Shown in pieces: positions 1 to 45,194 of a DNA stretch of 64,000 nt. Position numbers and translations under genes: made by a program. The stretch spans positions 51,081 through 115,080 of the forward strand of contig JAQVIJ010000001.1 in the NCBI GenBank assembly GCA_028695735.1, given 5' to 3'. How positions within the stretch are numbered: position 1 is the first letter of the stretch; each line of letters starts with the position of its first letter. Origin of the DNA: Deltaproteobacteria bacterium. Its GTDB lineage: Bacteria; Desulfobacterota; Dissulfuribacteria; Dissulfuribacterales; DYLC01. The notes beneath the pieces are model-generated. The model saw only the letters and a list, made by a program, of their open reading frames with translations. It did not search any database and was not told the origin of the DNA.

Positions 1-247
1 GATTTGCAGTCTGCCAAAGGATGCGGCCTGTGCGCCTGTCCTTCATACGCACAGCACACTCCACATTGATGCGGCGTTCTACGGCCTTGTCATAGGCAAG
101 AAATGAAAGGCCAGAGACATCCACCCTGCGCACCTCCCCTTCTATAATGACATCCGCCTCATCCCGTTCCGCCAGGCGCAAAGCCCCGCCTCGCAAAAAT
201 TCCCTGCGCAAGTCCTCGGTAATCCAAGACGCCAACTGAAATTCATT
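1..247 (-). pseudogene. Truncated second copy of lptE (5'-truncated fragment, continues left of window)
   Basis: These 247 bases match 1694-1940 inside the intact lptE without gaps and with only two differences (128 g versus 1821 t, 188 g versus 1881 a). They correspond to LptE residues 51-133. Identity stops at the attcatt of 241-247, where the intact gene continues and this copy does not, so the signal peptide and first 50 residues are missing. The 3' part lies outside the window. Both differences fall on third codon positions and are silent. The arrangement (a displaced 3' fragment, then an insert, then an intact gene) is what integration into a gene with restoration of its 3' end would leave, but an imperfect tandem duplication is also possible. 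Confidence 0.85.
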
Positions 248-483
248 TTGACAAGCTGTACTCAGGGACAATTATGAAAAGGTAAATTATGTATTATACT
301 CCTTTCTTATAGACTTACACCCGCCAATAAAATTTTCATTTGATGAACGGTTATAAAGGTTTTGCCCATAACAGAACCGGACATGATGGCTTTATTTCTT
401 TGAATTGACTACAACACAGCAGGGCAAGACAGCGCACTCTCTACAATGAGAACATATATCTATAACATACAAGGTGGCCGAAC

Positions 484-507
484 AAAAATGAAAACGTTTT
501 CATTTTT
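484..507. repeat. 24-bp perfect palindrome centred on AACGTT
   Basis: The two 12-base halves are exact reverse complements, with the centre between 495 and 496. The core TGAAAACGTTTTCA resembles operators bound by LacI/GalR-family repressors (CcpA-type cre sites have a similar layout). No such regulator is in the window. It could instead be a hairpin belonging to a mobile element. Confidence 0.7.
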
Positions 508-713
508 CATTAAACCGAAAATTGTTTGGCTAAACAAATAGATAAAACATACAACCTGCATAAGGCTGATAGTCCGATACAGTATAGGGATATAGACATG
601 ACGAAATTCCTGTGGCTGGATATATCTTGACTGGTATACGAAGAAGATAGTTGGCTATTCAAGGATGGGGCTGGCATTTTTTTATTTAACCCTTTTTTTG
701 CCTTTGTTTTTCT

Positions 714-740
714 TTGACAGTGCAGCAATCCCATGATAAT
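714..740 (+). promoter_or_regulatory. Possible sigma-70 promoter of the GIY-YIG/TPR gene
   Basis: TTGACA (714-719) is followed after 15 bases by GATAAT (735-740), about 60 bases before the start codon at 800. Both hexamers are good; the spacer is short. Confidence 0.35.
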
Positions 741-799
741 TTTTAGAAGACCTGTAAGATAGATAATGAATAATGTTGTAGATTGGGAGAGTTATCGCC

Positions 800-1453
800 A
801 TGAAGGGTTGGGTTTACATCATCACAAATAAAGCTATGCCAGGCATCATCAAGGTTGGCTTTTCCATGCAGGACCCAGAACTGCTGGCAGCAGAGTTAGA
901 CCACACAGGGTCACCCCACCCATACATCGTTGACTATGAGGTATTGGTTGACGAGCCCCATGACATTGAGCAAAAAGTTCACAATCGCTTGAGAAATCAC
1001 AGGGAGGGGAAAGAGTGGTTTCGCTGCACCACTGAAGAGGCAATCGCTACAATAAAAGAGGTCGTTGGCGCAAACATCTACATTGAGCAATTCAAACGTG
1101 CTGACAGGGAAAAAGCTGAAGCAATCAAGCAGCAAAGAGAATACGAGGAAGAATTAAGGCGTGTGGATAGGACTATAGAGGATTGTAGTAAGGCAATCCA
1201 GTTAAACCCAAATGATGCCGACGCCTACAACAATCGTGGGGATGCTTATGCGCACAAAGGACAATATGACAGGACGATAAAGGATTGTGATAAGGCAATT
1301 CAATTAAACCCAAATCTTGCCGCAGCCTACTACAATCGTGGGCTTGCTTATAAGCACAAAGGACAATATGACAAGGCAATTTCTGATTTCCAAACGGCAT
1401 GTGATATGGGGTTTGAGGAAGGGTGCATGGCATTGCAGATGATATTGGAATGA
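800..1453 (+). CDS. GIY-YIG (T5orf172/MUG113-type) protein with TPR repeats
   Basis: The 217-residue protein opens with a GIY-YIG superfamily fold of the T5orf172 type (residues about 3-85: GWVYIITN, IIKVGFS, then the conserved KEWFRCT near the end). A charged helical linker follows (about 95-125), then two tetratricopeptide repeats (about 125-200) whose DNA is also repetitive, with AIQLNPN appearing twice. GGGAG lies 10 bases before the ATG. The family has nuclease-like members of uncertain role, often phage-linked; the TPRs suggest a protein partner. It is the only gene in the insert between the two lptE copies, which points to recent acquisition. Function is unknown. Confidence 0.8.
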   Translation: MKGWVYIITNKAMPGIIKVGFSMQDPELLAAELDHTGSPHPYIVDYEVLVDEPHDIEQKVHNRLRNHREGKEWFRCTTEEAIATIKEVVGANIYIEQFKRADREKAEAIKQQREYEEELRRVDRTIEDCSKAIQLNPNDADAYNNRGDAYAHKGQYDRTIKDCDKAIQLNPNLAAAYYNRGLAYKHKGQYDKAISDFQTACDMGFEEGCMALQMILE

Positions 1454-1562
1454 TATGCAAGCGCTCCTTGCAGAACTTGCACTCCACTCCAAAGAGACCA
1501 ATCGCAGGTTTCAGGAAGACGCTCGTAAGTTTTATAAACTCCTGTTCACGCCTTTAAGGTTA
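1454..1562. other. Right end of the insert, downstream of intact lptE
   Basis: A short frame opens here at 1455 and runs to 1601 (48 codons, beginning MQALLAELALHSKET), overlapping the end of lptE on the other strand. It looks helical and could be a fragment of a gene cut by the insertion, but has no clear ribosome binding site. I see no terminator for lptE. Confidence 0.25.
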
Positions 1563-2090
1563 TTAAAACACACCTGTAACACGATGATATATAAGCTCGG
1601 CTAAATAACGGCTGATTTTCCTGGAGGCATCCGCCTTGAGTGCATCGCTTTCCATATTGTCTCTGCCTGTAAGAAAACCCTCGTCCCGCACCAGATTTGC
1701 AGTCTGCCAAAGGATGCGGCCTGTGCGCCTGTCCTTCATACGCACAGCACACTCCACATTGATGCGGCGTTCTACGGCCTTGTCATAGGCAAGAAATGAA
1801 AGGCCAGAGACATCCACCCTTCGCACCTCCCCTTCTATAATGACATCCGCCTCATCCCGTTCCGCCAGGCGCAAAGCCCCACCTCGCAAAAATTCCCTGC
1901 GCAAGTCCTCGGTAATCCAAGACGCCAACTGAAATTCATTGCTCTTATTGACAAAAGGTGCCACATAAACGGTCTGTATCCAGGACGGCAGGGACTCACT
2001 GCGCTCAGCAAACCTATAACCGCAACCGGATACCAGCCCAGCCAAAAGACCTATGACGGCCAACAAACTGAAAAAACGAAGATATTTCAT
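1563..2090 (-). CDS. lptE: LPS assembly lipoprotein LptE
   Basis: LptE is the outer-membrane lipoprotein that plugs the LptD beta-barrel and helps insert lipopolysaccharide into the outer leaflet. The 175-residue product has a lipoprotein signal peptide with lipobox LVSGC and acylated Cys23, then the CGYRF start typical of LptE and the conserved Ile/Val-rich body. Its ATG overlaps the leuS stop (ATGA), so it is translationally coupled as the last gene of the long minus-strand operon, the usual leuS-lptE order. Residues 51-133 are duplicated at 1-247; if an element integrated here, the 3' part of this gene may be of foreign origin. Confidence 0.9.
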   Translation of the reverse strand: MKYLRFFSLLAVIGLLAGLVSGCGYRFAERSESLPSWIQTVYVAPFVNKSNEFQLASWITEDLRREFLRGGALRLAERDEADVIIEGEVRRVDVSGLSFLAYDKAVERRINVECAVRMKDRRTGRILWQTANLVRDEGFLTGRDNMESDALKADASRKISRYLAELIYHRVTGVF

Positions 2091-33937: not shown

Positions 33938-34759
33938 ATGAATAATGCAAAGCTCTTTCTGAAGGCGCCGGTTTCCATACTGCAAAACCTGATGCGCCAC
34001 AGGCATCTGCTGATGCGCATGATCTGGCAGGAGATTCGAGGCAGATTCGCAGGCTCCTTCGGCGGGCTTGTCTGGCACTTTCTGCAGCCGCTGCTCATGG
34101 TGACCGTGTACCTCTTTGTGTTCGTGCATGTCTTCAAGCTGCGTGTAGAGGGGGCAGGAGCGGAGAACTTCTCCGCCCTTTACATCATGGCAGGCCTCTT
34201 TCCCTGGCTCATCTTTGCAGAGGGCTTAAGCCGCGGAAGCCAGTGCATTCACGAAAACGCCAATCTCATTCAAAAGACGGCCTTTCCCTCGGAACTGCTG
34301 GTATTCAAGGCGGTCTTGACTCCATATATCAGTTTCGGCATGATAGTCGTGGGGCTTGCAGTATATCGCCTGCTTTTCATAGGGTTTTCATGGCATGTCT
34401 TTGCCCTGCCCGTGGTGGCCATGCTACAATTTCTTTTCACCTGCGGACTGGTCTTTTTGTTCGCCACCCTGGCCGTATATTTCAAGGATATCCTACAACT
34501 CATTAACATCTTCGTAGGCTTTGGCATGTACCTGGTACCCATTTTGTTTCCTGCCTCCATGCTGCCCGAGCTTGCCCAAAGGCTCATGTATCTAAACCCC
34601 ACATATCCCATGATATATCCCTATCAACGCATGCTGGTCTTTGACAACATGGGCGAAACATCTATATTCTATATGCTTTTGGGCTGGAGCCTTTTGTTTT
34701 GGGTCCTTGGTTCCTTCGTATTCTATAAGCTGAAAGATGAGTTTGCAGACTGGCTATGA
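33938..34759 (+). CDS. Polysaccharide ABC transporter permease (Wzm type)
   Basis: The 273-residue membrane protein belongs to the ABC-2 family that exports undecaprenyl-linked O-antigen or similar glycans. Six membrane segments are visible, with the family's typical MIWQEIRGRFAGSFGGLVWH N-terminal amphipathic stretch and a NPTYPMIYPYQ segment near the C-terminus. It overlaps the ATPase gene by 4 bases and opens a gene array that runs to 46688. Confidence 0.93.
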   Translation: MNNAKLFLKAPVSILQNLMRHRHLLMRMIWQEIRGRFAGSFGGLVWHFLQPLLMVTVYLFVFVHVFKLRVEGAGAENFSALYIMAGLFPWLIFAEGLSRGSQCIHENANLIQKTAFPSELLVFKAVLTPYISFGMIVVGLAVYRLLFIGFSWHVFALPVVAMLQFLFTCGLVFLFATLAVYFKDILQLINIFVGFGMYLVPILFPASMLPELAQRLMYLNPTYPMIYPYQRMLVFDNMGETSIFYMLLGWSLLFWVLGSFVFYKLKDEFADWL

Positions 34760-35949
34760 TAGCGATCAAGGCAACAAATATCTCGAAATACTATCGCATA
34801 TATTCCTCACCCACAGAACGGCTCAAGGAGATTTTGCTGCGCAGGCCGTTTCACAAGGTCTTTACTGCATTGGAAGACATCAATCTTGAGGTGCTGCGGG
34901 GAGAGGCCTTGGGCATCATAGGCGAAAACGGGGCAGGCAAAAGCACACTGCTCAAGATACTGAGCCGTACCCTGAAACCCACCTCTGGCACCCTTGAGAT
35001 AAACGGCAGAACCGCAGCCCTGCTGGAGCTGGGGGCAGGGTTCAATCCAGAGCTATCAGGCGAGGAAAATATTCATCTCAACGCCTATCTGCTGGGCCTC
35101 ACCAAGGATGAAATAGAAGAGAGAAAGGCGGACATCATCGCCTTTTCAGAGCTTCAGGACTTCATTCACCAACCCGTAAAGACCTATTCCTCAGGCATGT
35201 ATGTAAGGCTTGCCTTTTCCATTGCCACCAGTGTAAATCCTGATATACTTATTATAGATGAGGCCCTGGCCGTTGGGGATCAGCGCTTTCAAAAGAAGTG
35301 TGTGGACCGCATGGTGGGCTTTCGTGAAAGCGGCAAGACCATCCTCTTTTGCAGCCACAGCATGTATCTGGTGCAAACCCTGTGTAAACGCGCCATCTGG
35401 CTGGATAAGGGTCGTATCCGCATGTCAGGCAGTGCAGAGGAGGTAACCAGGGCATACGAAGACTGGAGCATGGAAAAGGGAAAACAGTATGAAAAAGAGA
35501 CCCGTGAACTCATACAAACCCAATCCCTGCCCCCTCCTTGTCGCATCCTTTCCATTACCATGACTGATCTAGAGGGCAATCCCATTAAAGAGATCTCACA
35601 GCCGTTTCAAACCGTAAAATTGTCCATGGAACTAAAGGCCCAAGAAGACCTGCCGGTGCACCTCGGATTTGCCATTTTAAGGGCGGATGAGCTGCTCTGC
35701 TTTTGCAGTATCACCTCCTTTGACGGCCTGCAACCCATTCAACTCAAAAAAAATGAGCAAAAACGAGTCATATTGGAGCTAAAGGACCTAAATTTAGCGG
35801 ATGGCAGCTATAAAATCATGGGTGGAATCGCAGATGAACATGGCCTGCATGTGCACCATGCCCTCTGCGCCCCACCGTTTTTAGTCCGTTACAAGACCAA
35901 AGAGGGCATAGGCGTAATGACCTTGCCACGCAAATGGAGTTTTGAGTGA
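34756..35949 (+). CDS. Polysaccharide ABC transporter ATPase (Wzt type) with C-terminal domain
   Basis: Residues 1-240 are the nucleotide-binding domain (GENGAGKST, signature YSSGMYVRLAFS, Walker B ILIIDEALAVGD). Residues about 255-397 form the beta-sandwich domain that in Wzt proteins recognises a chemically capped glycan end before export. Its presence predicts that the polymer is terminated by a modification, for which the methyltransferase two genes down is a candidate. Confidence 0.93.
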   Translation: MIAIKATNISKYYRIYSSPTERLKEILLRRPFHKVFTALEDINLEVLRGEALGIIGENGAGKSTLLKILSRTLKPTSGTLEINGRTAALLELGAGFNPELSGEENIHLNAYLLGLTKDEIEERKADIIAFSELQDFIHQPVKTYSSGMYVRLAFSIATSVNPDILIIDEALAVGDQRFQKKCVDRMVGFRESGKTILFCSHSMYLVQTLCKRAIWLDKGRIRMSGSAEEVTRAYEDWSMEKGKQYEKETRELIQTQSLPPPCRILSITMTDLEGNPIKEISQPFQTVKLSMELKAQEDLPVHLGFAILRADELLCFCSITSFDGLQPIQLKKNEQKRVILELKDLNLADGSYKIMGGIADEHGLHVHHALCAPPFLVRYKTKEGIGVMTLPRKWSFE

Positions 35950-36884
35950 CAGAGATACTCTATCCAAAACAGGTGATATTAGAGGTCACCAATCACTGTA
36001 ATCTTAGATGTAAAGGCTGTGCCCTTCATGGCCCTCAAGCCTTTACCAAGAGGCCCAAGGGTTTTATGCCCGAAGAGATATGGCGCAAGGCCATAGCTGA
36101 GATGGGCACATGGCCTCAGGAGGTAAATCTCACTACACATGGTGGTGGAGAACCCCTTTTACATCCTCACCTCAAAGAGATTTTGGAGTTTGCAGGCCGA
36201 TTTCCAAACCTAACGAGGGGATTTCTCTCCAATGCCACATTGCTGACCGAAGATTGGGCGGATTTTCTTTTAAGCACAGGCATCGACTGGATCGCCTTTA
36301 GCATAGACGGCACTGTGCCTGAGACCCATGCCATCGTACGCAGGGGGTCAGATCTGAAAAAGATAGAACAAAACCTGCTAAATTTCATACAAAAAGGCAA
36401 AAAAGCCCATAAAAGGCCTCAAATCATGTTAAATATGGTGCTTTATGAAGAGGTTAAGGCGCAGGCACAGGAATTCGTAAAAAAATGGCTTCCTTTTGTG
36501 GATGTGGTCATGTTGTCACACTATCGCAATCCTCCATGCAGCAAACGATGGCCAGGCGAGCATGGACCTCGCAGACCATGTGACCTGCTCTGGTCACAGA
36601 TGGTCGTCGCATGGGACGGAAGCATGGGGCTGTGCTGTGAGGACTTTGATATAGAGGTTTGTTTGGGCGATGTGAGAAATGAGCCCTTGCTTGCCATCTG
36701 GAACAATAAAGCCATCACAAAATTTCGTGAACTGCATCGACAAGGCCGACAACAAGAACTGGCCTTGTGTCACGCCTGTGATACCTGGGCGGACATGCAC
36801 GCTGTCACCGAAGAGGACCGAGAAAACGGCTATTTAATTGTGCGCAAGGCCTCCTCTGTGGAGTATAGAACCCTGACTCCATGA
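35946..36884 (+). CDS. Radical SAM protein with SPASM-like C-terminus
   Basis: The CNLRCKGC motif (Cys-x3-Cys-x2-Cys) binds the radical SAM [4Fe-4S] cluster. Further Cys residues near the end (CDLLW, LCCEDFD, CHAC) fit a SPASM/twitch auxiliary cluster domain. The 312-residue protein starts at GTG overlapping the Wzt stop. Homologues act on peptides or sugars; the substrate here is unknown but the setting suggests a sugar or lipid-linked glycan. Confidence 0.85.
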   Translation: MTEILYPKQVILEVTNHCNLRCKGCALHGPQAFTKRPKGFMPEEIWRKAIAEMGTWPQEVNLTTHGGGEPLLHPHLKEILEFAGRFPNLTRGFLSNATLLTEDWADFLLSTGIDWIAFSIDGTVPETHAIVRRGSDLKKIEQNLLNFIQKGKKAHKRPQIMLNMVLYEEVKAQAQEFVKKWLPFVDVVMLSHYRNPPCSKRWPGEHGPRRPCDLLWSQMVVAWDGSMGLCCEDFDIEVCLGDVRNEPLLAIWNNKAITKFRELHRQGRQQELALCHACDTWADMHAVTEEDRENGYLIVRKASSVEYRTLTP

Positions 36885-37783
36885 GCCTAAAATTTGGCAT
36901 CCCTTCTACCGATTCAGATCTGCTCTGTAGGCACTTAGGTATTCAGCCGGAGGAACGAGTCCTGGAGATAGGCGCAGGTCACCGGCCTTTTTTGCGGGCG
37001 GATGTGGTGGTGGACCTGGATTTTACTCAAAGTGCGCACAGGGACGGCGAAGCCATGGTCATAGAGCAAAAACAACGCCTCTATGTCCAGGCTGACCTCA
37101 CTGCTTTACCATTTAAAGACAAGAGCTTTGATTGGGTGATATGTCTGCATGTATTGGAACATGTATCAGAACCAGCAAAGGCATGCCAAGAGCTGATGCG
37201 TGTGGCCCACAAGGGCTTTTTGGAGACACCTCGCAAGTGGACAGAATACTATGCAGGCCACCCCACTCATCGATGGCTCATAGATGATATAAATGGTGTC
37301 TTGATCTTTGAACCAGTGGACTGGCTATCCTCGCCCTTTTTCAACTTTGCCCTGGCTCAAGCCTGGTCATCCCCTCTGTTATTAAAGAGTGTGGAGCTGG
37401 ACTTCAGACAGATTCCATGTGTACAAAAGCAGTGGCACGAAACATTTGAATATGTGGTAGCTGGTCACAATCCTGCCTGGGACGATGCATCGCATCAGGC
37501 CCTTCGGCACTATCACTTTGCCAAAAACCTCATCTACTGGCTCATAGAGCCATCCAAAGCCCTTTTCCATGCACAAAAGGCCTTTGAGTGCGACTCAAAT
37601 AACCTGCATTTCCGCTCACTCTACAGTCTTTATCTAATGCTATGCGGTAAATACTCAAAGGCCTGGAGAATAAACAAAAATCTTCACAAGTGGCTGGCTG
37701 CATGGCTGGCAGCTACTTGCCTGAGAATAGTGCACAAAGGCACTCTCATCTTTCGAAAACTCATGGCTTATATTCTAAACTAA
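36881..37783 (+). CDS. SAM-dependent methyltransferase
   Basis: A class I methyltransferase: motif I ERVLEIGAGHRPF (residues about 25-37), an acidic VDLDFT, and the SFDWVICLHVLEHV motif. The C-terminal part (about 185-300) has no recognised domain. It overlaps both neighbours by a few bases. A methyl cap on the exported glycan, as made by WbdD-type enzymes, is a reasonable guess. Confidence 0.83.
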   Translation: MSLKFGIPSTDSDLLCRHLGIQPEERVLEIGAGHRPFLRADVVVDLDFTQSAHRDGEAMVIEQKQRLYVQADLTALPFKDKSFDWVICLHVLEHVSEPAKACQELMRVAHKGFLETPRKWTEYYAGHPTHRWLIDDINGVLIFEPVDWLSSPFFNFALAQAWSSPLLLKSVELDFRQIPCVQKQWHETFEYVVAGHNPAWDDASHQALRHYHFAKNLIYWLIEPSKALFHAQKAFECDSNNLHFRSLYSLYLMLCGKYSKAWRINKNLHKWLAAWLAATCLRIVHKGTLIFRKLMAYILN

Positions 37784-38682
37784 TGGATACACTGCTCACT
37801 TTTTATTTCGAATACATCTTAAAATGGTCTTCCAGACTGCCTGTTCCAATGTGCTATAAGATTCTACTGAAGACAGGCCATTGGTTTCGCAATTGGAAGA
37901 TTTATAGTGCAGCAACTGGCTTTCAGGGGGTTCTCTATCATGCAGAAGAAAATCTAAAGACATTGTTAAATATTTCTCCAACAATGGCAAAAAATATACT
38001 GCATCAATTTCTCGCTTTTGAAAGTAGATATGTATTAGAAAACAACTGGCTCAAAACTAAAAACGAAAAGAACATAAAAAATGCCTTCAACCAAGCCGCA
38101 ATAGAACAACTCAAAATACATCTTCAGAATCGACAGGCTATTATATGTACTATGCATTCAGCCAATCTATTTCTTATGGGAGCTCTGTTACATATCATAG
38201 GCCATCATATAACATTTATGTTAGCTATAATACCTGAAGCCATACCCAACGGTGCAAATCCACTTCATCAGAATGGCATTCGCATGATTATGGAATGGAA
38301 GGAGTGGCAATCTCTTGTTCCAGCCAATATGCAGGCAGCTCGTCAAGCGATCTCCAATGGGGCATCTCTTATATTAGCGTCTGATACCCCTGGTTATAAT
38401 CAAAAGGGTGTTCTTGTGACCCTGTTCGGCCAAAGGTTTTGGGTGCCTGTAGGGGCTGCAAAGCTGGCCCAGGAGTTTCAATTACCCCTTTTCGTGGCTA
38501 TTCCATGGGCCAAGGATGTAACGAGCCGTTATGATCTGGTAATTCAAGAGATAGACACATCAGGCACATTACAAGATGTGATGGCTCAAGTATTCCAAGT
38601 GGCTGAACAGGCCATTTTAAAAAATCCAAGCTGCTGGATGGGCTGGCTTTGTCTACATCTGATGGCTGATGTCTCAGAATAA
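37783..38682 (+). CDS. LpxL/HtrB-like acyltransferase family protein
   Basis: The 299-residue protein resembles bacterial lipid A acyltransferases: an N-terminal membrane-associated segment, a CTMHSANLFLMG stretch in place of the catalytic HxxxxD/E motif, and a later VLVTLFGQRFWVPVGAAKLA stretch matching the acyl-acceptor region. The catalytic acidic residue is not obvious, so activity is unsure. It starts at ATG 37783, sharing a base with the previous stop. An acyltransferase in an O-antigen export locus is unusual. Confidence 0.7.
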   Translation: MDTLLTFYFEYILKWSSRLPVPMCYKILLKTGHWFRNWKIYSAATGFQGVLYHAEENLKTLLNISPTMAKNILHQFLAFESRYVLENNWLKTKNEKNIKNAFNQAAIEQLKIHLQNRQAIICTMHSANLFLMGALLHIIGHHITFMLAIIPEAIPNGANPLHQNGIRMIMEWKEWQSLVPANMQAARQAISNGASLILASDTPGYNQKGVLVTLFGQRFWVPVGAAKLAQEFQLPLFVAIPWAKDVTSRYDLVIQEIDTSGTLQDVMAQVFQVAEQAILKNPSCWMGWLCLHLMADVSE

Positions 38683-39658
38683 CTCCATGACAATACATCA
38701 AAAAACCATAGAATTCTCCTGGACTCATCCCCTTGACCTAAAACCCATTGGAGAGCTCTTCGCAGCGTGTTTTCAAGCCCCGTTTTCTGATGCCCTATGG
38801 AAATGGAAATATGGGAAGGACCCCAAGTGCATTACTGCATGGACGAATGGCCAGGCCATAGGCCACTACGCCGGCATTCCCAGGACCATTCTTCTCATGT
38901 CCGAATCCATATCCATGGTGCAGATCACCGATGTCATGGTGCACCCCAAAGAGCGCACAGCCTACGGCAAAAAAGGCATCTTCTTTCAAATGGCCTCTCG
39001 TTTTTTGGAACGATATGTGGGGTATGATAAAGAGTTTTTACAAGCCTTTGGCTTTCCCAATGAACGGCATACCAGACTTGGCATCCTCTTAGGCGTCTAT
39101 GGCAGGGCAGACAAGATGTGGCATGTGGAATGGCAACCATTAGCACATGCACCATTCACCTTCTATAAAAACAAAACCATTCTGCATTCCGATGCCACCC
39201 TGACTCGCATTATTCCGAGGCTATGGCAGCGCATGCAAGGCTCTTTAACCCATTATCTTGTGCCTAAAAGGGATACTGGGTATATAATACATCGCTATTT
39301 TCAACACCCTGAGATTCAATATCAAGTTCATGGAGTGTTTCATCGAATCTTAGGGCATTGTAAAGGGGTCTTTGTATTACGGCCCCATGAGAACAGCAGT
39401 TTTGAACTCATGGACTTGATGGCTGATGCCCAAGACATGCCCATGGTCCTGGCCTTTGCCAGATATGAGGTAGCCCGGCAAAAGGGGCTGTCCCTTTTTA
39501 GTTGGATGAGCGAGCCCATGGCAAATCAATTGGGAAAGGATGCCAAACTCACTGACATACAAGTAACTGTCCCGTGTATCACATGGACACCCTGCCTCAC
39601 ACCAGAGGAACTACAGGGCAGGTGGTGGCTGATGTCAGGGGACACTGACTGGAGATAG
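38669..39658 (+). CDS. GNAT-family acetyltransferase-like protein
   Basis: The first part (about 15-150) reads like a GNAT fold (AIGHYAGIPRTI, ITDVMVHPKERTAYGKKGIFF, then FGFPNERH). The remaining half may be a second degenerate GNAT domain. The ATG at 38669 overlaps the previous gene; ATG 38687 is an alternative. It may acylate an amino sugar of the glycan. Confidence 0.68.
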   Translation: MSQNNSMTIHQKTIEFSWTHPLDLKPIGELFAACFQAPFSDALWKWKYGKDPKCITAWTNGQAIGHYAGIPRTILLMSESISMVQITDVMVHPKERTAYGKKGIFFQMASRFLERYVGYDKEFLQAFGFPNERHTRLGILLGVYGRADKMWHVEWQPLAHAPFTFYKNKTILHSDATLTRIIPRLWQRMQGSLTHYLVPKRDTGYIIHRYFQHPEIQYQVHGVFHRILGHCKGVFVLRPHENSSFELMDLMADAQDMPMVLAFARYEVARQKGLSLFSWMSEPMANQLGKDAKLTDIQVTVPCITWTPCLTPEELQGRWWLMSGDTDWR

Positions 39659-39662
39659 CCCG

Positions 39663-42347
39663 TTGGAATCACTTCTTATGCCATATTCCGCCGTAGAATG
39701 CATACCAGCCCAATCCGTGCTGGTATTTGCCCCCCATCCCGATGACGAGGTCTTTGGATGTGGCGGCGCCATTCTCCGTCACAGAGAGGCCGGAGTCCCT
39801 GTACAAGTGATCGTGATTTCAGACGGCGCATACGGGGCAAAAGACGAAGTAACACGAGGGGAATTGGCCAAAACCCGAGAACAGGAAAGCCAGCAGGCCG
39901 CACGCATCTTAAAATGTACACCGCCCATCTTTTGGAACTATAAAGACAGGGGTATTAGCTACTGTGAGGAACTGATTGATCGCATCAAGGCCGCAATCCT
40001 TGAGACAAAGGCCGACCTCATCTACACCCCTTCCCTCTTGGAGATGCACCCTGACCACAGGGCTGTGGCAATGGCCACATTGGAGGCGATACGCCGATTG
40101 AATACAGGAATTCGCATAGCCATGTATGAAATCGGCATACCCATCAGGCCCAATCTGCTTGTGGACATCACAGATGTCTGGCTGCAAAAGGCCCAGGCCA
40201 TGGCCTGCTTTAAGTCTCAACTAAAGATACAGGCCTATGACGAACACATAACAGGCCTCAATCGCTATCGCACATACACCTTAGGCCCGAACAGCAGATA
40301 TGCAGAGGCATATTGTCTCATCGAGCCTGACACACTGCAAAGGGATTTTTTGAGTATCTACGAGTCAGAATATGAAAAACAGGCCAGGCTTGCCCTACCT
40401 CTGCCGCTTTTACACGGGCATATGCCCAAGGTCTCGGTCCTGATTCGCAGCATGGACAGGCCTGAGCTAAAAGATGCATTAGATAGTGTCGCCCTACAGA
40501 CCTATTCCAACATAGAGGTCATACTCGTCAATGCAAAGGGGCCAGGCCATAAAAGACCAGGGGGGCAGTGCGGCCGATTTCCACTCCACTTTTTGGACTC
40601 AGAAAGGCCTCTATCCCGAAGTGAGGCAGGCAATCTGGCCATGGAACATGCCTCGGGTGAGTTTCTCATCTTTTTAGATGACGATGACATCTTTTTACCT
40701 GACCATATTCACACCCTTGTCTCATCACTTATGGCCCATTCAGAAAAAAAGGCAGCCTACACCGCCATAGCCGCCATGGATGCCAACAGAACACCCCTGA
40801 CCATGTGTTTTGACACACCTTTCGATTTCATTTTACTTTTGGCAGGCAACTGTATCCCCATTCATGCGGTGATGTTTTCAAGGCAATTGCTGCAAGCGGG
40901 CTGCAGATTGGATGAAGGATTTGACCTCTATGAAGACTGGGACCTCTGGATTCAAGTAAGCCGACACACGGATTTTCTGTTTATTCCAAAGATAACGGCC
41001 TATTATCGCATGACCACTCACTCGGGCAAGGGCGTTAGGCCTGATTTCCAAAGGATGTATCAGGCCGGCCGTCAAATCTTTGAAAAATGGCGAGGTCTCT
41101 GGACAAAAGAGATATTGGAATATGTGACGAGGCGCATTGAAACCTCCAAGATAAATCCAGGCCTTTTGCAGGCCGCGCAAGAGGCCTTTGACGGCCCGAG
41201 AGCCACTGAAGCCGACGGGAATACCTCGTTGCAAACATCTCCTATCTCCATTGCAGTGGTGTTACATCTGTTTTATTTAGAACTCTGGCCTGAAATACAC
41301 CAATATCTCAAAAACATACCTGTGCCTTTTGATCTCTTTATAACTGTGCCCGTGGAACAAGCAAGTCAGATAAAAGACCAGATCACAGGTCACGACGACC
41401 ATATCCACTTCTTTCCAATGGAAAATCGCGGAAGGGATATATTGCCTTTTCTCACTGTTCTAGCCGAACTCATAAGGCAAAACTATCTGTGTGTCTGTAA
41501 GATACACACCAAAAGGTCCCGAGATGCGTGGCGCAATGATCTGTTACAAGGCCTGTTGGGCAGCGAACAACAAGTGCAAGCGATTCTTCAGCGCTTTCAA
41601 AAAGACTCAAGACTTGGCATATTAGGTCCGGATCAACATTATATCTCCTGTGCCATGTATCCAGACGCCCATATGGACAGGCTGAAATCCCTTGCAGAGC
41701 AACTGATGCCAGGGTGCTTTCAACAAGATTGGCATTTCTTTGGCGGCTCGATGTTCTGGTTCAGACCAGCGGCTTTGCTTCCAATCTTGGGATTGAGCCT
41801 ATCTTCAAAGGATTTTGAGCCTGAAAGCGGCCAAAAAGAAGGGACATTGGCGCATATCTTGGAAAGGCTCTTTACCATAAGTGCCAAAGCTGCTGGATTT
41901 GAAGTGGAAACCATTAATTCTTCTACCGAGAAGACTCGGGATGAGATATATCCATTTACACCTCAATCCACATGGGATCTAATGCGAGAAAAGAACAGTC
42001 TCCTTATACAACTCAAGGATACAATATCTGCCCTGCAACAGGCTGAACAACTCGCTATAGAAAGATTAAATCAACTACAACTAACTGAAAATGCCCTAAA
42101 AAACGCCGAACAACTCGCTATAGAAAGATTTGAAACTATACAAAATATAAATCAACAGCTAAACCGCACTGAAAATGCCTTAAAAAACGCTGAACAACTC
42201 GCTATAGAAAGATTAAATATTATACACAAACTATCTCAAGAATTGGATAATTATAAAAAATACATCCAAGTAATAAAACAGCACTGGACATGGCGTATTT
42301 TAACAAAATTAAATATTATTCCCGATAACCATGAAATCAACAATTAA
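39663..42347 (+). CDS. PIG-L deacetylase / GT2 glycosyltransferase / RgpF-domain fusion with repetitive coiled coil
   Basis: An 894-residue multidomain enzyme. Residues about 15-230 are a PIG-L/LmbE zinc deacetylase (HPDDE at 25-29, HPDHR further on). About 255-480 is a GT2 glycosyltransferase (KVSVLIRSMDRPE, DDDD near 338). About 528-760 is the rhamnan-synthesis F (RgpF) domain (ENRGRDILPF, KIHTKRS, FFGGSMFWFR). About 779-885 is a coiled coil with near-identical repeats (NAEQLAIER three times). The start is a TTG with GGAG 8 bases upstream; ATG 39678 is an alternative. It could deacetylate and extend the glycan, with the coil setting chain length. Confidence 0.88.
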   Translation: MESLLMPYSAVECIPAQSVLVFAPHPDDEVFGCGGAILRHREAGVPVQVIVISDGAYGAKDEVTRGELAKTREQESQQAARILKCTPPIFWNYKDRGISYCEELIDRIKAAILETKADLIYTPSLLEMHPDHRAVAMATLEAIRRLNTGIRIAMYEIGIPIRPNLLVDITDVWLQKAQAMACFKSQLKIQAYDEHITGLNRYRTYTLGPNSRYAEAYCLIEPDTLQRDFLSIYESEYEKQARLALPLPLLHGHMPKVSVLIRSMDRPELKDALDSVALQTYSNIEVILVNAKGPGHKRPGGQCGRFPLHFLDSERPLSRSEAGNLAMEHASGEFLIFLDDDDIFLPDHIHTLVSSLMAHSEKKAAYTAIAAMDANRTPLTMCFDTPFDFILLLAGNCIPIHAVMFSRQLLQAGCRLDEGFDLYEDWDLWIQVSRHTDFLFIPKITAYYRMTTHSGKGVRPDFQRMYQAGRQIFEKWRGLWTKEILEYVTRRIETSKINPGLLQAAQEAFDGPRATEADGNTSLQTSPISIAVVLHLFYLELWPEIHQYLKNIPVPFDLFITVPVEQASQIKDQITGHDDHIHFFPMENRGRDILPFLTVLAELIRQNYLCVCKIHTKRSRDAWRNDLLQGLLGSEQQVQAILQRFQKDSRLGILGPDQHYISCAMYPDAHMDRLKSLAEQLMPGCFQQDWHFFGGSMFWFRPAALLPILGLSLSSKDFEPESGQKEGTLAHILERLFTISAKAAGFEVETINSSTEKTRDEIYPFTPQSTWDLMREKNSLLIQLKDTISALQQAEQLAIERLNQLQLTENALKNAEQLAIERFETIQNINQQLNRTENALKNAEQLAIERLNIIHKLSQELDNYKKYIQVIKQHWTWRILTKLNIIPDNHEINN
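42042..42214 (+). repeat. Tandem coding repeats in the coiled coil
   Basis: The stretch GAACAACTCGCTATAGAAAG occurs three times (around 42045, 42108 and 42190), inside a longer 47-base unit at about 42084-42130 and 42168-42214 that is almost identical. Such nearly exact repeats can gain or lose copies by slippage or recombination. Confidence 0.8.
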
Positions 42348-43953
42348 ATATGGCATTGATGCCATGTTATGCAGAAGAAATAGTTTATTTGGCTTTGGAT
42401 GGCTTTTTCATCCAGACATAAAAATTAAGGATGTTAATCTATTACTTAATTTAGAAAATGGTAAAATAAGCAGATTACCTGTTGAATACGGTAAATATAG
42501 AGAAGATGTAGCTAAACTTTTTCCAAATATAGAAAATGCAAAGGCATGTGGTTTTGTAGTCTATGGTGCTTGGGATGCAAGCAAAATTATAACTGCTAAC
42601 TTAGAGATTAAAATGACAAATGGAGAAATTATCACTATTATTACACCATTAGAATATCTTGACACATCATCAGCGACACATACCAAACAAAAAAAATATT
42701 ATATTTATAAAGTATTATTCAAAAGACTAACTGAGCTTTTGAGACAAAGAGTAAAACCTAATATACTAATAGAAAAAATAAAGCGGAATATAACGAATCT
42801 ATCAGACTCAACATTTGATACTGGAAAAATATTGTATGACATTGAAAAATATAATATAGCTGAAACTATACTTATTATTGACCATGAATTAGGTGGTGGT
42901 GCTAATAAATATAGAAATACATTAAGTAAAAAATATCTTGAAGAAGGGAAGATTATATTATTATTAACATATCATCTATTATCATTACAATATATTTTGG
43001 AAATACATACCACAAATACACAAAAGAGATATAAATTATCTTCAATTGAAGAGATATATAAAATAGCAAATTTAATCAAAATAAAAAAAATTATTTACAA
43101 TACTGCTGTATCTTTTGAAAAACCAGAAGATATACCAATACTTCTAACAAATCTTTCAAAAGCTTATAATATACCAATGGTTATAAATATCAATGATTAT
43201 TTTGTAGTATGTCCATCTCCATTTTTATTAAATCAAAATGGTCGTTATTGTAATGTACCAGATATAAATATTTGTAATACATGTCTCAAAAACAATAGGG
43301 AAGGTTTTATAACACTCTTTACTGCTGCAGATATAAAACTATGGCGAAAAAGATGGGAAATGTGTTTAATCCAGGCAGAACAGATATTATGTTTTTCGGC
43401 ATCTTCTAAAAACATTATAAAAAAGGCTTATCCATCATTATCGGATAATAGCTTCAAAATTCAACCACATACTGTCAAGAAACCAATAAAATATCCAAAA
43501 ATCATTATAAACAAAGCATTACACATTGGAGTAGTAGGTCATATCAACATACATAAGGGAGCCAAAATTATTCAAGAATTATCAAATATAATTAAAAAAG
43601 AAGGAAAAACAATATCTATTTCCATAATAGGTTCAATAGAATTACCATGTGATTCTAAAATTGTATCTATTACTGGGCCATATAAATCAAATGAATTGCC
43701 AATAATTGTAGAGAAAATAGGAGCTAATATATTTTTAATGCCCTCAATATGTCCAGAAACATTCTCATATGTAACTCAAGAATTAATCGATATGGAAGTT
43801 CCATTAGTATGTTTTGATATTGGTGCCCAAGCTGAAAAAATTAAAAACTATCATAAAGGACTTATAATATCTTATGACAGTACCCCCAATGAAATTCTGG
43901 AACAAATTGAACAATTTCATAAAAAGCTTATAGAACAGGAAATGAATAGATGA
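42331..43953 (+). CDS. Glycosyltransferase family 4/group 1, strongly AT-rich
   Basis: The 540-residue protein has an N-terminal beta-type domain (about 18-95, GFGWLFHPD and the GFVVYGAWD segment) found in other polysaccharide glycosyltransferases, and a GT-B fold with the C-terminal E-x7-E motif CPETFSYVTQE (about 468-478). Base composition is far more AT-rich than its neighbours; one 60-base line at 42901 has only 12 G/C. The start overlaps the end of the preceding fusion gene, whose last 100 codons are also AT-rich. This suggests a recent import. Confidence 0.83.
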   Translation: MKSTIKYGIDAMLCRRNSLFGFGWLFHPDIKIKDVNLLLNLENGKISRLPVEYGKYREDVAKLFPNIENAKACGFVVYGAWDASKIITANLEIKMTNGEIITIITPLEYLDTSSATHTKQKKYYIYKVLFKRLTELLRQRVKPNILIEKIKRNITNLSDSTFDTGKILYDIEKYNIAETILIIDHELGGGANKYRNTLSKKYLEEGKIILLLTYHLLSLQYILEIHTTNTQKRYKLSSIEEIYKIANLIKIKKIIYNTAVSFEKPEDIPILLTNLSKAYNIPMVININDYFVVCPSPFLLNQNGRYCNVPDINICNTCLKNNREGFITLFTAADIKLWRKRWEMCLIQAEQILCFSASSKNIIKKAYPSLSDNSFKIQPHTVKKPIKYPKIIINKALHIGVVGHINIHKGAKIIQELSNIIKKEGKTISISIIGSIELPCDSKIVSITGPYKSNELPIIVEKIGANIFLMPSICPETFSYVTQELIDMEVPLVCFDIGAQAEKIKNYHKGLIISYDSTPNEILEQIEQFHKKLIEQEMNR

Positions 43954-45194
43954 AACAAATTCACCTTTTTACAAGTTCAGCATGTAATTATATTCCCAAG
44001 GTAAGACTACTCTTTCAATCCATTCGTAAATTCCATCCTGACTGGATACTACATTTAGCCCTTGCAGACGAATTAAAGCCTGAAATTGACCTCTCCCAAG
44101 AACCATTTGACAAAATCTGGCCTATAGCTGAACTGGGTATTCCGCACTGGAAGGCATGGGCCTTTTGTCACAATATAGTCGAGCTGGCCACTGCTATCAA
44201 ACCCTTCACCCTCTTAAGGCTCATGGAGCTCCCAGAAACCTCAAATATTATTTACTTAGACCCCGATACAGTAGTCTTTTCTCACCTAAATGATATCATA
44301 ACTGCCTTGAATGAAAGCACCTTTTTGCTCACGCCACATCTGACTGAACCAGAAGAAACCCTGAATGCTGTAATGGATAATGAAATATGTGCACTAAAAC
44401 ACGGGGTTTATAACCTGGGTTTTTTGGGGATAACAATCAATGACGAAAGCCGTCGTTTTGCAAACTGGTGGGCGAATAGGCTCTATCACTTCTGCAGAGC
44501 AGACATAAAAAACGGTCTATTTACGGATCAAAGATGGATTGACCTGGTCCCCGCCTTTTTCGAAGGTGTTGCCATCATGCGTTCACCAAGACATAATGTG
44601 GCCTCATGGAATCTTACTCATCGGCACCTATCAGGCGATTTTGAAAGGGGTTTCTTTGTAAATGATGAACCACTGGGTTTTTATCATTTTACAGGGTTCG
44701 ACAGCGGCGCCCATGACCTCATGGTGATCAAGAATATAGGTACAAATAAGTCAGTCACAATGCTTCTCAACTGGTACCAAAAACAAACACAAGAGCTGAG
44801 CAAGGACCCATTGGCCCAAATCCCATGGGCGTTTGCACGATTTTCAGATGGCACACTCATAGAACCGATACAGAGAATCGTGTATAGAGAGCGACAAGAC
44901 CTACAACAGGCCTTTCCGGATCCATTTGATGCCAACGGTTTTTTGGCCTGGTGGAGAATGCAGGCACCCGTTGAATACCCAAGTCTTTTTAAAAATGGGA
45001 CTGACTCATCAGAGATTGAAAAACTCTTTGGACGCCTCAGCCCAGGATATTTAGGCACAGACATCAGACCCAACAGCATAAAAAAGCTACTTAAGACAGC
45101 CGTAAGTAACCCCAAAATCATGTCGAATCTCTTACAAAAGACCTGGTATATCTTAAAACATGAAGGGATTACAGGTATCAAAAGACGCATCTAA
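43950..45194 (+). CDS. Glycosyltransferase (GT-A fold, GT8-like)
   Basis: The 414-residue protein has a nucleotide-sugar domain with the DxD motif in IIYLDPDTVVF (about residues 105-115) and the following HLNDI segment, as in GT8 and related families. Base composition returns to that of the genome in most of the gene. It overlaps the previous gene by 4 bases. The acceptor and sugar are unknown. Confidence 0.75.
   Translation: MKQIHLFTSSACNYIPKVRLLFQSIRKFHPDWILHLALADELKPEIDLSQEPFDKIWPIAELGIPHWKAWAFCHNIVELATAIKPFTLLRLMELPETSNIIYLDPDTVVFSHLNDIITALNESTFLLTPHLTEPEETLNAVMDNEICALKHGVYNLGFLGITINDESRRFANWWANRLYHFCRADIKNGLFTDQRWIDLVPAFFEGVAIMRSPRHNVASWNLTHRHLSGDFERGFFVNDEPLGFYHFTGFDSGAHDLMVIKNIGTNKSVTMLLNWYQKQTQELSKDPLAQIPWAFARFSDGTLIEPIQRIVYRERQDLQQAFPDPFDANGFLAWWRMQAPVEYPSLFKNGTDSSEIEKLFGRLSPGYLGTDIRPNSIKKLLKTAVSNPKIMSNLLQKTWYILKHEGITGIKRRI

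What the first reader, a model, noticed from the sequence alone, without database searches (positions are those of the whole stretch)
39663..42347. Deacetylase-GT2-RgpF fusion ending in a repeated coiled coil
Four parts in one chain: PIG-L deacetylase, GT2, rhamnan-synthesis F domain, and a coil made of near-identical DNA repeats. In O9a-type systems the coil length of WbdD acts as a molecular ruler for chain length before Wzm/Wzt export. Nearly identical repeats here could change copy number and so tune polymer length.
Basis: partly seen in the sequence, partly recalled or inferred. Interest (0 to 1): 0.6.

Follow-up and report, generated by a model that had tools for sequence, protein, structure and literature searches.

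The report
Sugar-polymer enzyme with coiled-coil spacer
A bacterial surface-sugar enzyme, encoded beside its exporter, joins a deacetylase, two sugar transferases and a rod-like coil that probably sets how long the sugar chain grows; its relatives carry the same head with coils of very different lengths, and nothing shows that the repeats change in number within the species.

Summary
The four-part protein is real (894 aa: PIG-L, GT2, RgpF, coil) and lies about 3.7 kb downstream of wzm and a wzt with a carbohydrate-binding domain. The repeats are real but modest: a 23-nt core occurs three times, 63 and 84 nt apart; whole units are 62-81% identical. The coil is about 95 residues of unbroken heptads.

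Two further results. (1) In other genomes of the same order the same PIG-L-GT2 head is followed directly by a coil (28-167 residues), then by other transferase modules or nothing. This is the layout of known coiled-coil ruler proteins (WbbB, KpO7 ORF6, WbdD), but with a deacetylase/GT2 head that I found in no described terminator. (2) The window's protein is a mosaic. RgpF sits between GT2 and coil, and the AT-rich coil with the next gene looks imported. That coil resembles coils of methyltransferase-coil proteins beside Wzm/Wzt or beside homologues of the two downstream transferases.

So 'ruler near the exporter' is supported. 'Repeat copy number tunes length' is untested, since only one genome per species is held. 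Best reading: a new variant of a known kind. That PIG-L-GT2 is the chain terminator is inference.

The parts
39663..42347 (+). PIG-L-GT2-RgpF-coil protein (P0001, 894 aa)
39720..40091 (+). PIG-L deacetylase domain (residues 20-143), closest solved relatives diacetylchitobiose deacetylases
   Evidence: Pfam 2.6e-31; PDB 8bgn/8bgo by sequence 4e-21 and fold
40461..40739 (+). GT2 domain (residues 267-359 by Pfam; homology to relatives about 254-495)
41238..41897 (+). RgpF domain (residues 526-745)
   Evidence: Pfam 5.7e-40
41976..42260 (+). coiled coil, residues 772-866 (AlphaFold helix 771-882); low GC3 (0.23 for residues 796-894)
42045..42067 (+). 23-nt repeat core, copy 1
42108..42130 (+). 23-nt repeat core, copy 2 (63 nt downstream of copy 1)
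42192..42214 (+). 23-nt repeat core, copy 3 (84 nt downstream of copy 2)
42282..42311 (+). coil end motif HWTWRILTKL, similar to SW(K/R)xTxPLR at the end of coils in related proteins
33938..34759 (+). Wzm (ABC-2 permease)
   Evidence: Pfam ABC2_membrane 6.5e-14
34756..35949 (+). Wzt ATPase with C-terminal carbohydrate-binding domain (Wzt_C at about 35542-35859)
   Evidence: Pfam ABC_tran 2.6e-22, Wzt_C 1e-10
35946..36884 (+). radical SAM/SPASM protein of the cluster; 45% identical homologue in the G012 cluster
36881..37783 (+). free methyltransferase, rival candidate for the chain terminator; 41% identical homologue in the G012 cluster
37690..38682 (+). LpxL-like acyltransferase
   Evidence: Pfam Lip_A_acyltrans 3.2e-13
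38669..39658 (+). GNAT acyltransferase; a homologue lies directly upstream of PIG-L in several relatives
42331..43953 (+). GT4 glycosyltransferase, GC3 0.16, probably imported with the coil
43950..45194 (+). glycosyltransferase, 58% identical to a Citrobacter plasmid protein

Best explanation
P0001 is a synthase and coiled-coil ruler protein of an ABC-transporter-dependent surface polysaccharide. The coil oligomerises and holds the N-terminal catalytic head about 14-17 nm from its C-terminal end, where the polymerising transferases (the two next genes, GT4 and GT) and the membrane are expected. Chains grow until their tip reaches the head. There GT2 would add a terminal amino sugar and PIG-L would deacetylate it (the upstream GNAT may re-acylate it). 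The carbohydrate-binding domain of Wzt would then recognise this cap and export the chain. SHOWN: domains, coil, neighbourhood, recurrence of PIG-L-GT2-coil in the order, similarity of this coil to coils of methyltransferase-coil proteins, mosaic composition. INFERRED: oligomerisation, ruler function, PIG-L-GT2 as terminator, nature of the cap, roles of GT4 and GT, place of RgpF (it may polymerise or add the penultimate rhamnose; the genome has RmlC for dTDP-rhamnose).
For: Wzm and Wzt with Wzt_C lie 3.7 kb upstream; in studied systems such Wzt domains read a terminal cap, and a coil protein carries the terminator at its distal end (PMC11231755, PMC9445017). PIG-L-GT2 proteins of the same order have a coil after GT2: G041 167 aa, G008 76, G031 76, G016 74 and others; in G001 (140), G017 (119) and G068 (81) PIG-L is a separate gene and the coil follows GT2; the G017 and G068 proteins end soon after the coil; AlphaFold agrees for G017. 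PIG-L and Wzm or Wzt are on the same fetched stretch in 7 loci (L048, L050, L051, L052, L054, L058, L059), and GNAT lies directly upstream of PIG-L in L049, L050, L051, L055 and L066. P0001's coil matches the methyltransferase-coil proteins of G077 and Pandoraea (1.5e-6, 1.9e-6) and weakly Citrobacter (0.003), none of 200 heptad-preserving shuffles reached its score, and coils of the order's own proteins did not match. RmlC is present in the genome.
Against: In P0001 the coil is not directly after GT2 (RgpF intervenes) and polymerase modules do not follow it in the same chain. The tail helix is not outstandingly amphipathic (moment rank 74 of 877). A free methyltransferase in the cluster could be the terminator. 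Association of the window's Wzt binding-domain type with PIG-L in the order is only moderate (10 of 14 against 11 of 32 genomes, Fisher p 0.03, 0.05 without the own genome). Coil calls for G002, G003 and G012 are short and weak. The G017 helix is broken at 315-321 in the monomer model, so a hairpin is not excluded there. No chemistry of the glycan is known.
Confidence: 0.45

Rival explanations
1. The free methyltransferase (36881-37783) makes the cap; P0001 is the polymerase, and its coil only gathers RgpF, GT2 and the downstream transferases at the membrane. Coil length then has no ruler role, or acts as a ruler only together with the methyltransferase.
For: Methyl caps are common in known systems, e.g. 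3-O-methyl rhamnose or mannose in Aquifex (PMC9445017); a 41% identical methyltransferase lies near Wzt in G012; the coil proteins in Citrobacter, Pandoraea, G077 and G515 are methyltransferases; G002 and G012 have a methyltransferase fused behind PIG-L-GT2.
Against: The free methyltransferase has no coil; most PIG-L-GT2-coil proteins scanned carry no methyltransferase domain.
Confidence: 0.22
2. The coil is a generic oligomerisation or membrane-anchoring element without influence on chain length; PIG-L-GT2-RgpF is an ordinary multidomain synthase.
For: Coil lengths in relatives range from about 28 to 167 residues with unrelated sequences, as expected of a loosely constrained linker; the coil end motif SW(K/R)xTxPLR is shared by several proteins.
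Against: Repeated coupling of coil, PIG-L-GT2 head and Wzm/Wzt; the published coil proteins of this transporter class act as rulers (PMC11231755, PMC5082667).
Confidence: 0.23
3. One reading: recombination between the 23-nt repeats adds or removes 21 or 28 residues in frame and in heptad register, so the population varies chain length.
For: Repeats are exact over 23 nt and spaced by whole heptads, so a deletion between cores would keep frame and register (3-4 nm change); synonymous codon agreement points to past DNA duplication.
Against: Units have diverged to 62-81%; only three copies; no second genome of the species to compare; no relative shows a coil with this unit in another copy number except G077, with a diverged 21-residue unit.
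Confidence: 0.08

Closest known systems
WbdD (E. coli O9a / K. pneumoniae O3)
   Same: Catalytic head, then coil, then a short C-terminal region; encoded beside Wzm and Wzt with a cap-binding domain; polymerase in separate proteins.
   Different: No methyltransferase or kinase domain found in P0001; head is PIG-L-GT2-RgpF; resemblance is of layout, not homology of the heads.
WbbB (K. pneumoniae O12) and ORF6 of K. pneumoniae O7
   Same: Same-order relatives show head, coil, then further transferase modules in one chain.
   Different: WbbB terminates with a Kdo transferase and O7 ORF6 with a methyltransferase-kinase; here the head is a deacetylase plus GT2. In P0001 itself no modules follow the coil.
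Methyltransferase-coil proteins of Citrobacter braakii plasmid pF217-3, Pandoraea oxalativorans plasmid pPO70-3 and genome G077
   Same: Specifically similar coil repeat (AxxLAxERL type, 21 or 28 residues), a neighbouring GT of the same family as 43950-45194, Wzm and Wzt nearby.
   Different: Heads are methyltransferases, not PIG-L-GT2-RgpF.
PIG-L-GT2-coil proteins of the same order (G041, G008, G016, G031; split genes in G017, G068, G001)
   Same: Homologous head (up to 46% identity), coil, linked Wzm/Wzt where contigs allow.
   Different: Coil directly follows GT2 and has unrelated sequence and length; no RgpF. (G068 is of the same phylum, not the same order.)
PF05045 RgpF / rhamnan synthesis proteins
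   Same: Domain matches the C-terminal half of the profile (positions 268-502).
   Different: N-terminal half of the profile is absent; embedded in a multidomain protein of a Gram-negative-type cluster.

Membership tests
Coiled-coil ruler/terminator proteins of ABC-transporter-dependent glycan assembly | Encoded with Wzm and Wzt | tested here: met
Coiled-coil ruler/terminator proteins of ABC-transporter-dependent glycan assembly | Wzt carries a C-terminal carbohydrate-binding domain | tested here: met
   Wzt_C, 1e-10
Coiled-coil ruler/terminator proteins of ABC-transporter-dependent glycan assembly | Extended coiled coil | tested here: met
[quoted passage not shown]
   catalytic domains are distal but their terminating activity is inferred only
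Coiled-coil ruler/terminator proteins of ABC-transporter-dependent glycan assembly | Membrane-associated amphipathic helix / polymerase recruitment site behind the coil | tested here: inconclusive
   W-R-rich tail with a motif shared by relatives, hydrophobic moment only rank 74 of 877
Coiled-coil ruler/terminator proteins of ABC-transporter-dependent glycan assembly | Coil length sets glycan length | not testable with these tools
   needs experiment
[quoted passage not shown]
   no such match in P0001; PDB sequence search gave no WbdD
WbbB / KpO7 ORF6 layout | Head, coil, then C-terminal polymerase modules in one chain | tested here: not met
   P0001 ends 28 residues after the predicted coil; met in G041, G008, G001, G086
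PIG-L deacetylases (PF02585) | Profile match and intact metal-site motifs | tested here: met
Slippage-prone tandem repeat (contingency) locus | Copy number differs between strains | not testable with these tools
   one genome per species held
Slippage-prone tandem repeat (contingency) locus | Array of near-identical units | tested here: not met
   62-81% identical units, no array called

The most novel reading that the evidence does not exclude
PIG-L-GT2-coil proteins, often with a GNAT gene upstream, are a hitherto undescribed class of chain terminator: the glycan is capped with an amino sugar whose N-acyl group is removed or exchanged, and the cap is read by the Wzt binding domain. The coil lengths seen across the order (about 28 to 167 residues) set species-specific chain lengths.
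Probability: 0.3. Interest if true: 0.75.

Novelty: new variant of a known kind. Interest (0 to 1): 0.48.

Why it matters
Known terminators cap chains with methyl, methyl-phosphate or Kdo. A deacetylase-GT2 head in the same layout would add a new capping chemistry. A natural series of homologous heads with coils of very different length would let the ruler idea be tested outside enterobacteria. The mosaic gene also shows how a ruler coil may be exchanged between glycan clusters together with transferase genes.

Tried and rejected
Searching for the coil by sequence in 99 relatives, 395 phylum genomes and 369 genomes of the class of G424 found no real relative; these searches are insensitive, since the G077 coil, later found by synteny, was not reported, so absence is not shown. 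A fixed 28-residue two-copy pattern misses units spaced by 21. Viral contig, phage and plasmid searches with coil queries gave nothing useful. The Citrobacter gene pair has no match in E. coli genomes. WbdD membership rejected (no methyltransferase or kinase). A clean link between Wzt binding-domain type and PIG-L: only moderate. RgpF origin: P0001's domain is about equally similar (35-37%) to same-order RgpF and to G516 RgpF, so an imported RgpF is neither shown nor excluded; its C-terminal linker resembles the same-order proteins.

Full report
OBSERVATION. The ORF 39663-42347 encodes 894 residues. Pfam finds PIG-L, GT2 and RgpF in the order stated, with the expected catalytic motifs present in the alignment (APHPDDE, HPDHR, LDDDD, YEDWD). 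Fold and sequence comparisons relate the first domain to diacetylchitobiose deacetylases. One face of the helix is hydrophobic or Ala in 13 of 13 heptads.

REPEATS. Three AEQLAIER units start at residues 794, 815 and 843, so they are 3 and 4 heptads apart. They share an exact 23-nt core (42045, 42108, 42192), the only 23-mer found three times in the window. Whole 84-nt units are 62 and 81% identical to the reference copy, and no tandem array is called. The seven shared codons are unlikely to agree by chance (about 2e-4 under local codon use), so DNA duplication is likely. A deletion between cores would keep reading frame and heptad register. Whether this happens is unknown.

NEIGHBOURHOOD. Upstream lie Wzm, Wzt with a Wzt_C domain, a radical SAM protein, a methyltransferase, an LpxL-like acyltransferase and a GNAT protein. 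Downstream lie a GT4 and another glycosyltransferase, then a miaA-like gene (miaA read from the sequence by eye). The genome also encodes RmlC, so dTDP-rhamnose is plausible.

MOSAIC. GC at third codon positions is 0.56 in PIG-L, 0.53 in GT2, 0.46 in RgpF, 0.23 in the coil, 0.16 in the GT4 gene and 0.43 in the last gene. The best full-length plasmid-encoded relatives of the two downstream genes lie on a Citrobacter braakii plasmid (36 and 58%) and a Pandoraea plasmid (32 and 54%). In the phylum sample only 4 of 198 genomes (own included) had the second gene, at best 44% outside the own genome. On both plasmids the two genes lie beside Wzm, Wzt and a methyltransferase protein with a C-terminal coil. 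Genome G077 of the same phylum has GT, methyltransferase-coil, a GT4-type gene, Wzm and Wzt in one stretch, and its coil carries AxxLAxERL units 21 residues apart. P0001's coil matches the coils of G077 and Pandoraea (1.5e-6 and 1.9e-6) and weakly that of Citrobacter (0.003). The reversed coil gave no match and none of 200 heptad-preserving shuffles reached that score, although many other coils were in the same set. G516, a genome of the class of G424, has RgpF, GT4 and GT in the same gene order without a coil. So the coil and the following gene were probably imported into, or exchanged within, an older cluster.

THE HEAD IN RELATIVES. PIG-L-GT2 fusions occur in the same order and in a few other genomes of the phylum. 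In the same order their Wzt proteins align with the window's Wzt at 43-48% identity, mostly full length. Coil prediction places a coil after GT2 in G041 (167 residues), G031 and G008 (76), G016 (74), G086 (39), G050 (33), and weakly G002, G003 and G012; with PIG-L as a separate gene also in G001 (140), G017 (119) and G068 (81). The G017 and G068 proteins stop soon after the coil; others continue into WbsX, GT1, GT2 or methyltransferase modules. Several of these coils end in SW(K/R)xTxPLR; P0001 has TWRILTKL there. Of 273 ORFs of 300 residues or more in the fetched loci, 13 had coils of at least 50 residues, so such coils are not common background (the 13 include the proteins discussed). Seven loci have Wzm or Wzt on the same fetched stretch, and GNAT lies directly upstream of PIG-L in five. 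AlphaFold shows GT2 followed by long helices in G017, with a break at 315-321.

INTERPRETATION. In studied systems the coil protein carries the terminator at the far end of the coil, coil length sets chain length, and Wzt reads the cap (PMC11231755, PMC5082667, PMC3482155, PMC9445017). The layout here fits, with PIG-L-GT2 in the place of the terminator. The held literature gave no paper joining PIG-L with O-antigen termination; this library is not complete. That PIG-L-GT2 terminates is an inference from position and recurrence. The free methyltransferase remains a serious rival, and the coil may be only a scaffold.

VERDICT. 'Ruler near the exporter' is plausible and strengthened. 'Copy-number dial' is untested. 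I rate it a new variant of a known kind.

Noticed in passing
window 1-1940: A 247-nt direct repeat (1-247 and 1694-1940, 99%), overlapping a reverse-strand lipoprotein-like gene (1563-2090), flanks an ORF (800-1453) whose C-terminal part reads as tetratricopeptide-like repeats with a 102-nt DNA repeat; looks like an insertion or duplication.
   Followed up: partly
L087 (NZ_CP136728.1, 82122-111726): A plasmid typed as conjugative, from Citrobacter braakii, carries rml genes, Wzm, Wzt, a methyltransferase-coil protein and transferases among insertion sequences: a mobile O-antigen-like cluster.
   Followed up: partly
window 35946-37783: A radical SAM/SPASM protein and a methyltransferase in the glycan cluster, both with homologues next to Wzt in G012 (45 and 41%); role unknown.
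   Followed up: no
window 37690-38682: An LpxL-like acyltransferase gene of lower GC3 (0.38) that overlaps the methyltransferase gene by 94 nt and has no homologue in the fetched relatives' loci.
   Followed up: no
L057, residues 246-385 of the G001 protein: The coil of the same-family relative contains almost perfect heptad repeats (LQTEHQKLQTEHHEF...), another candidate for repeat-number variation.
   Followed up: no
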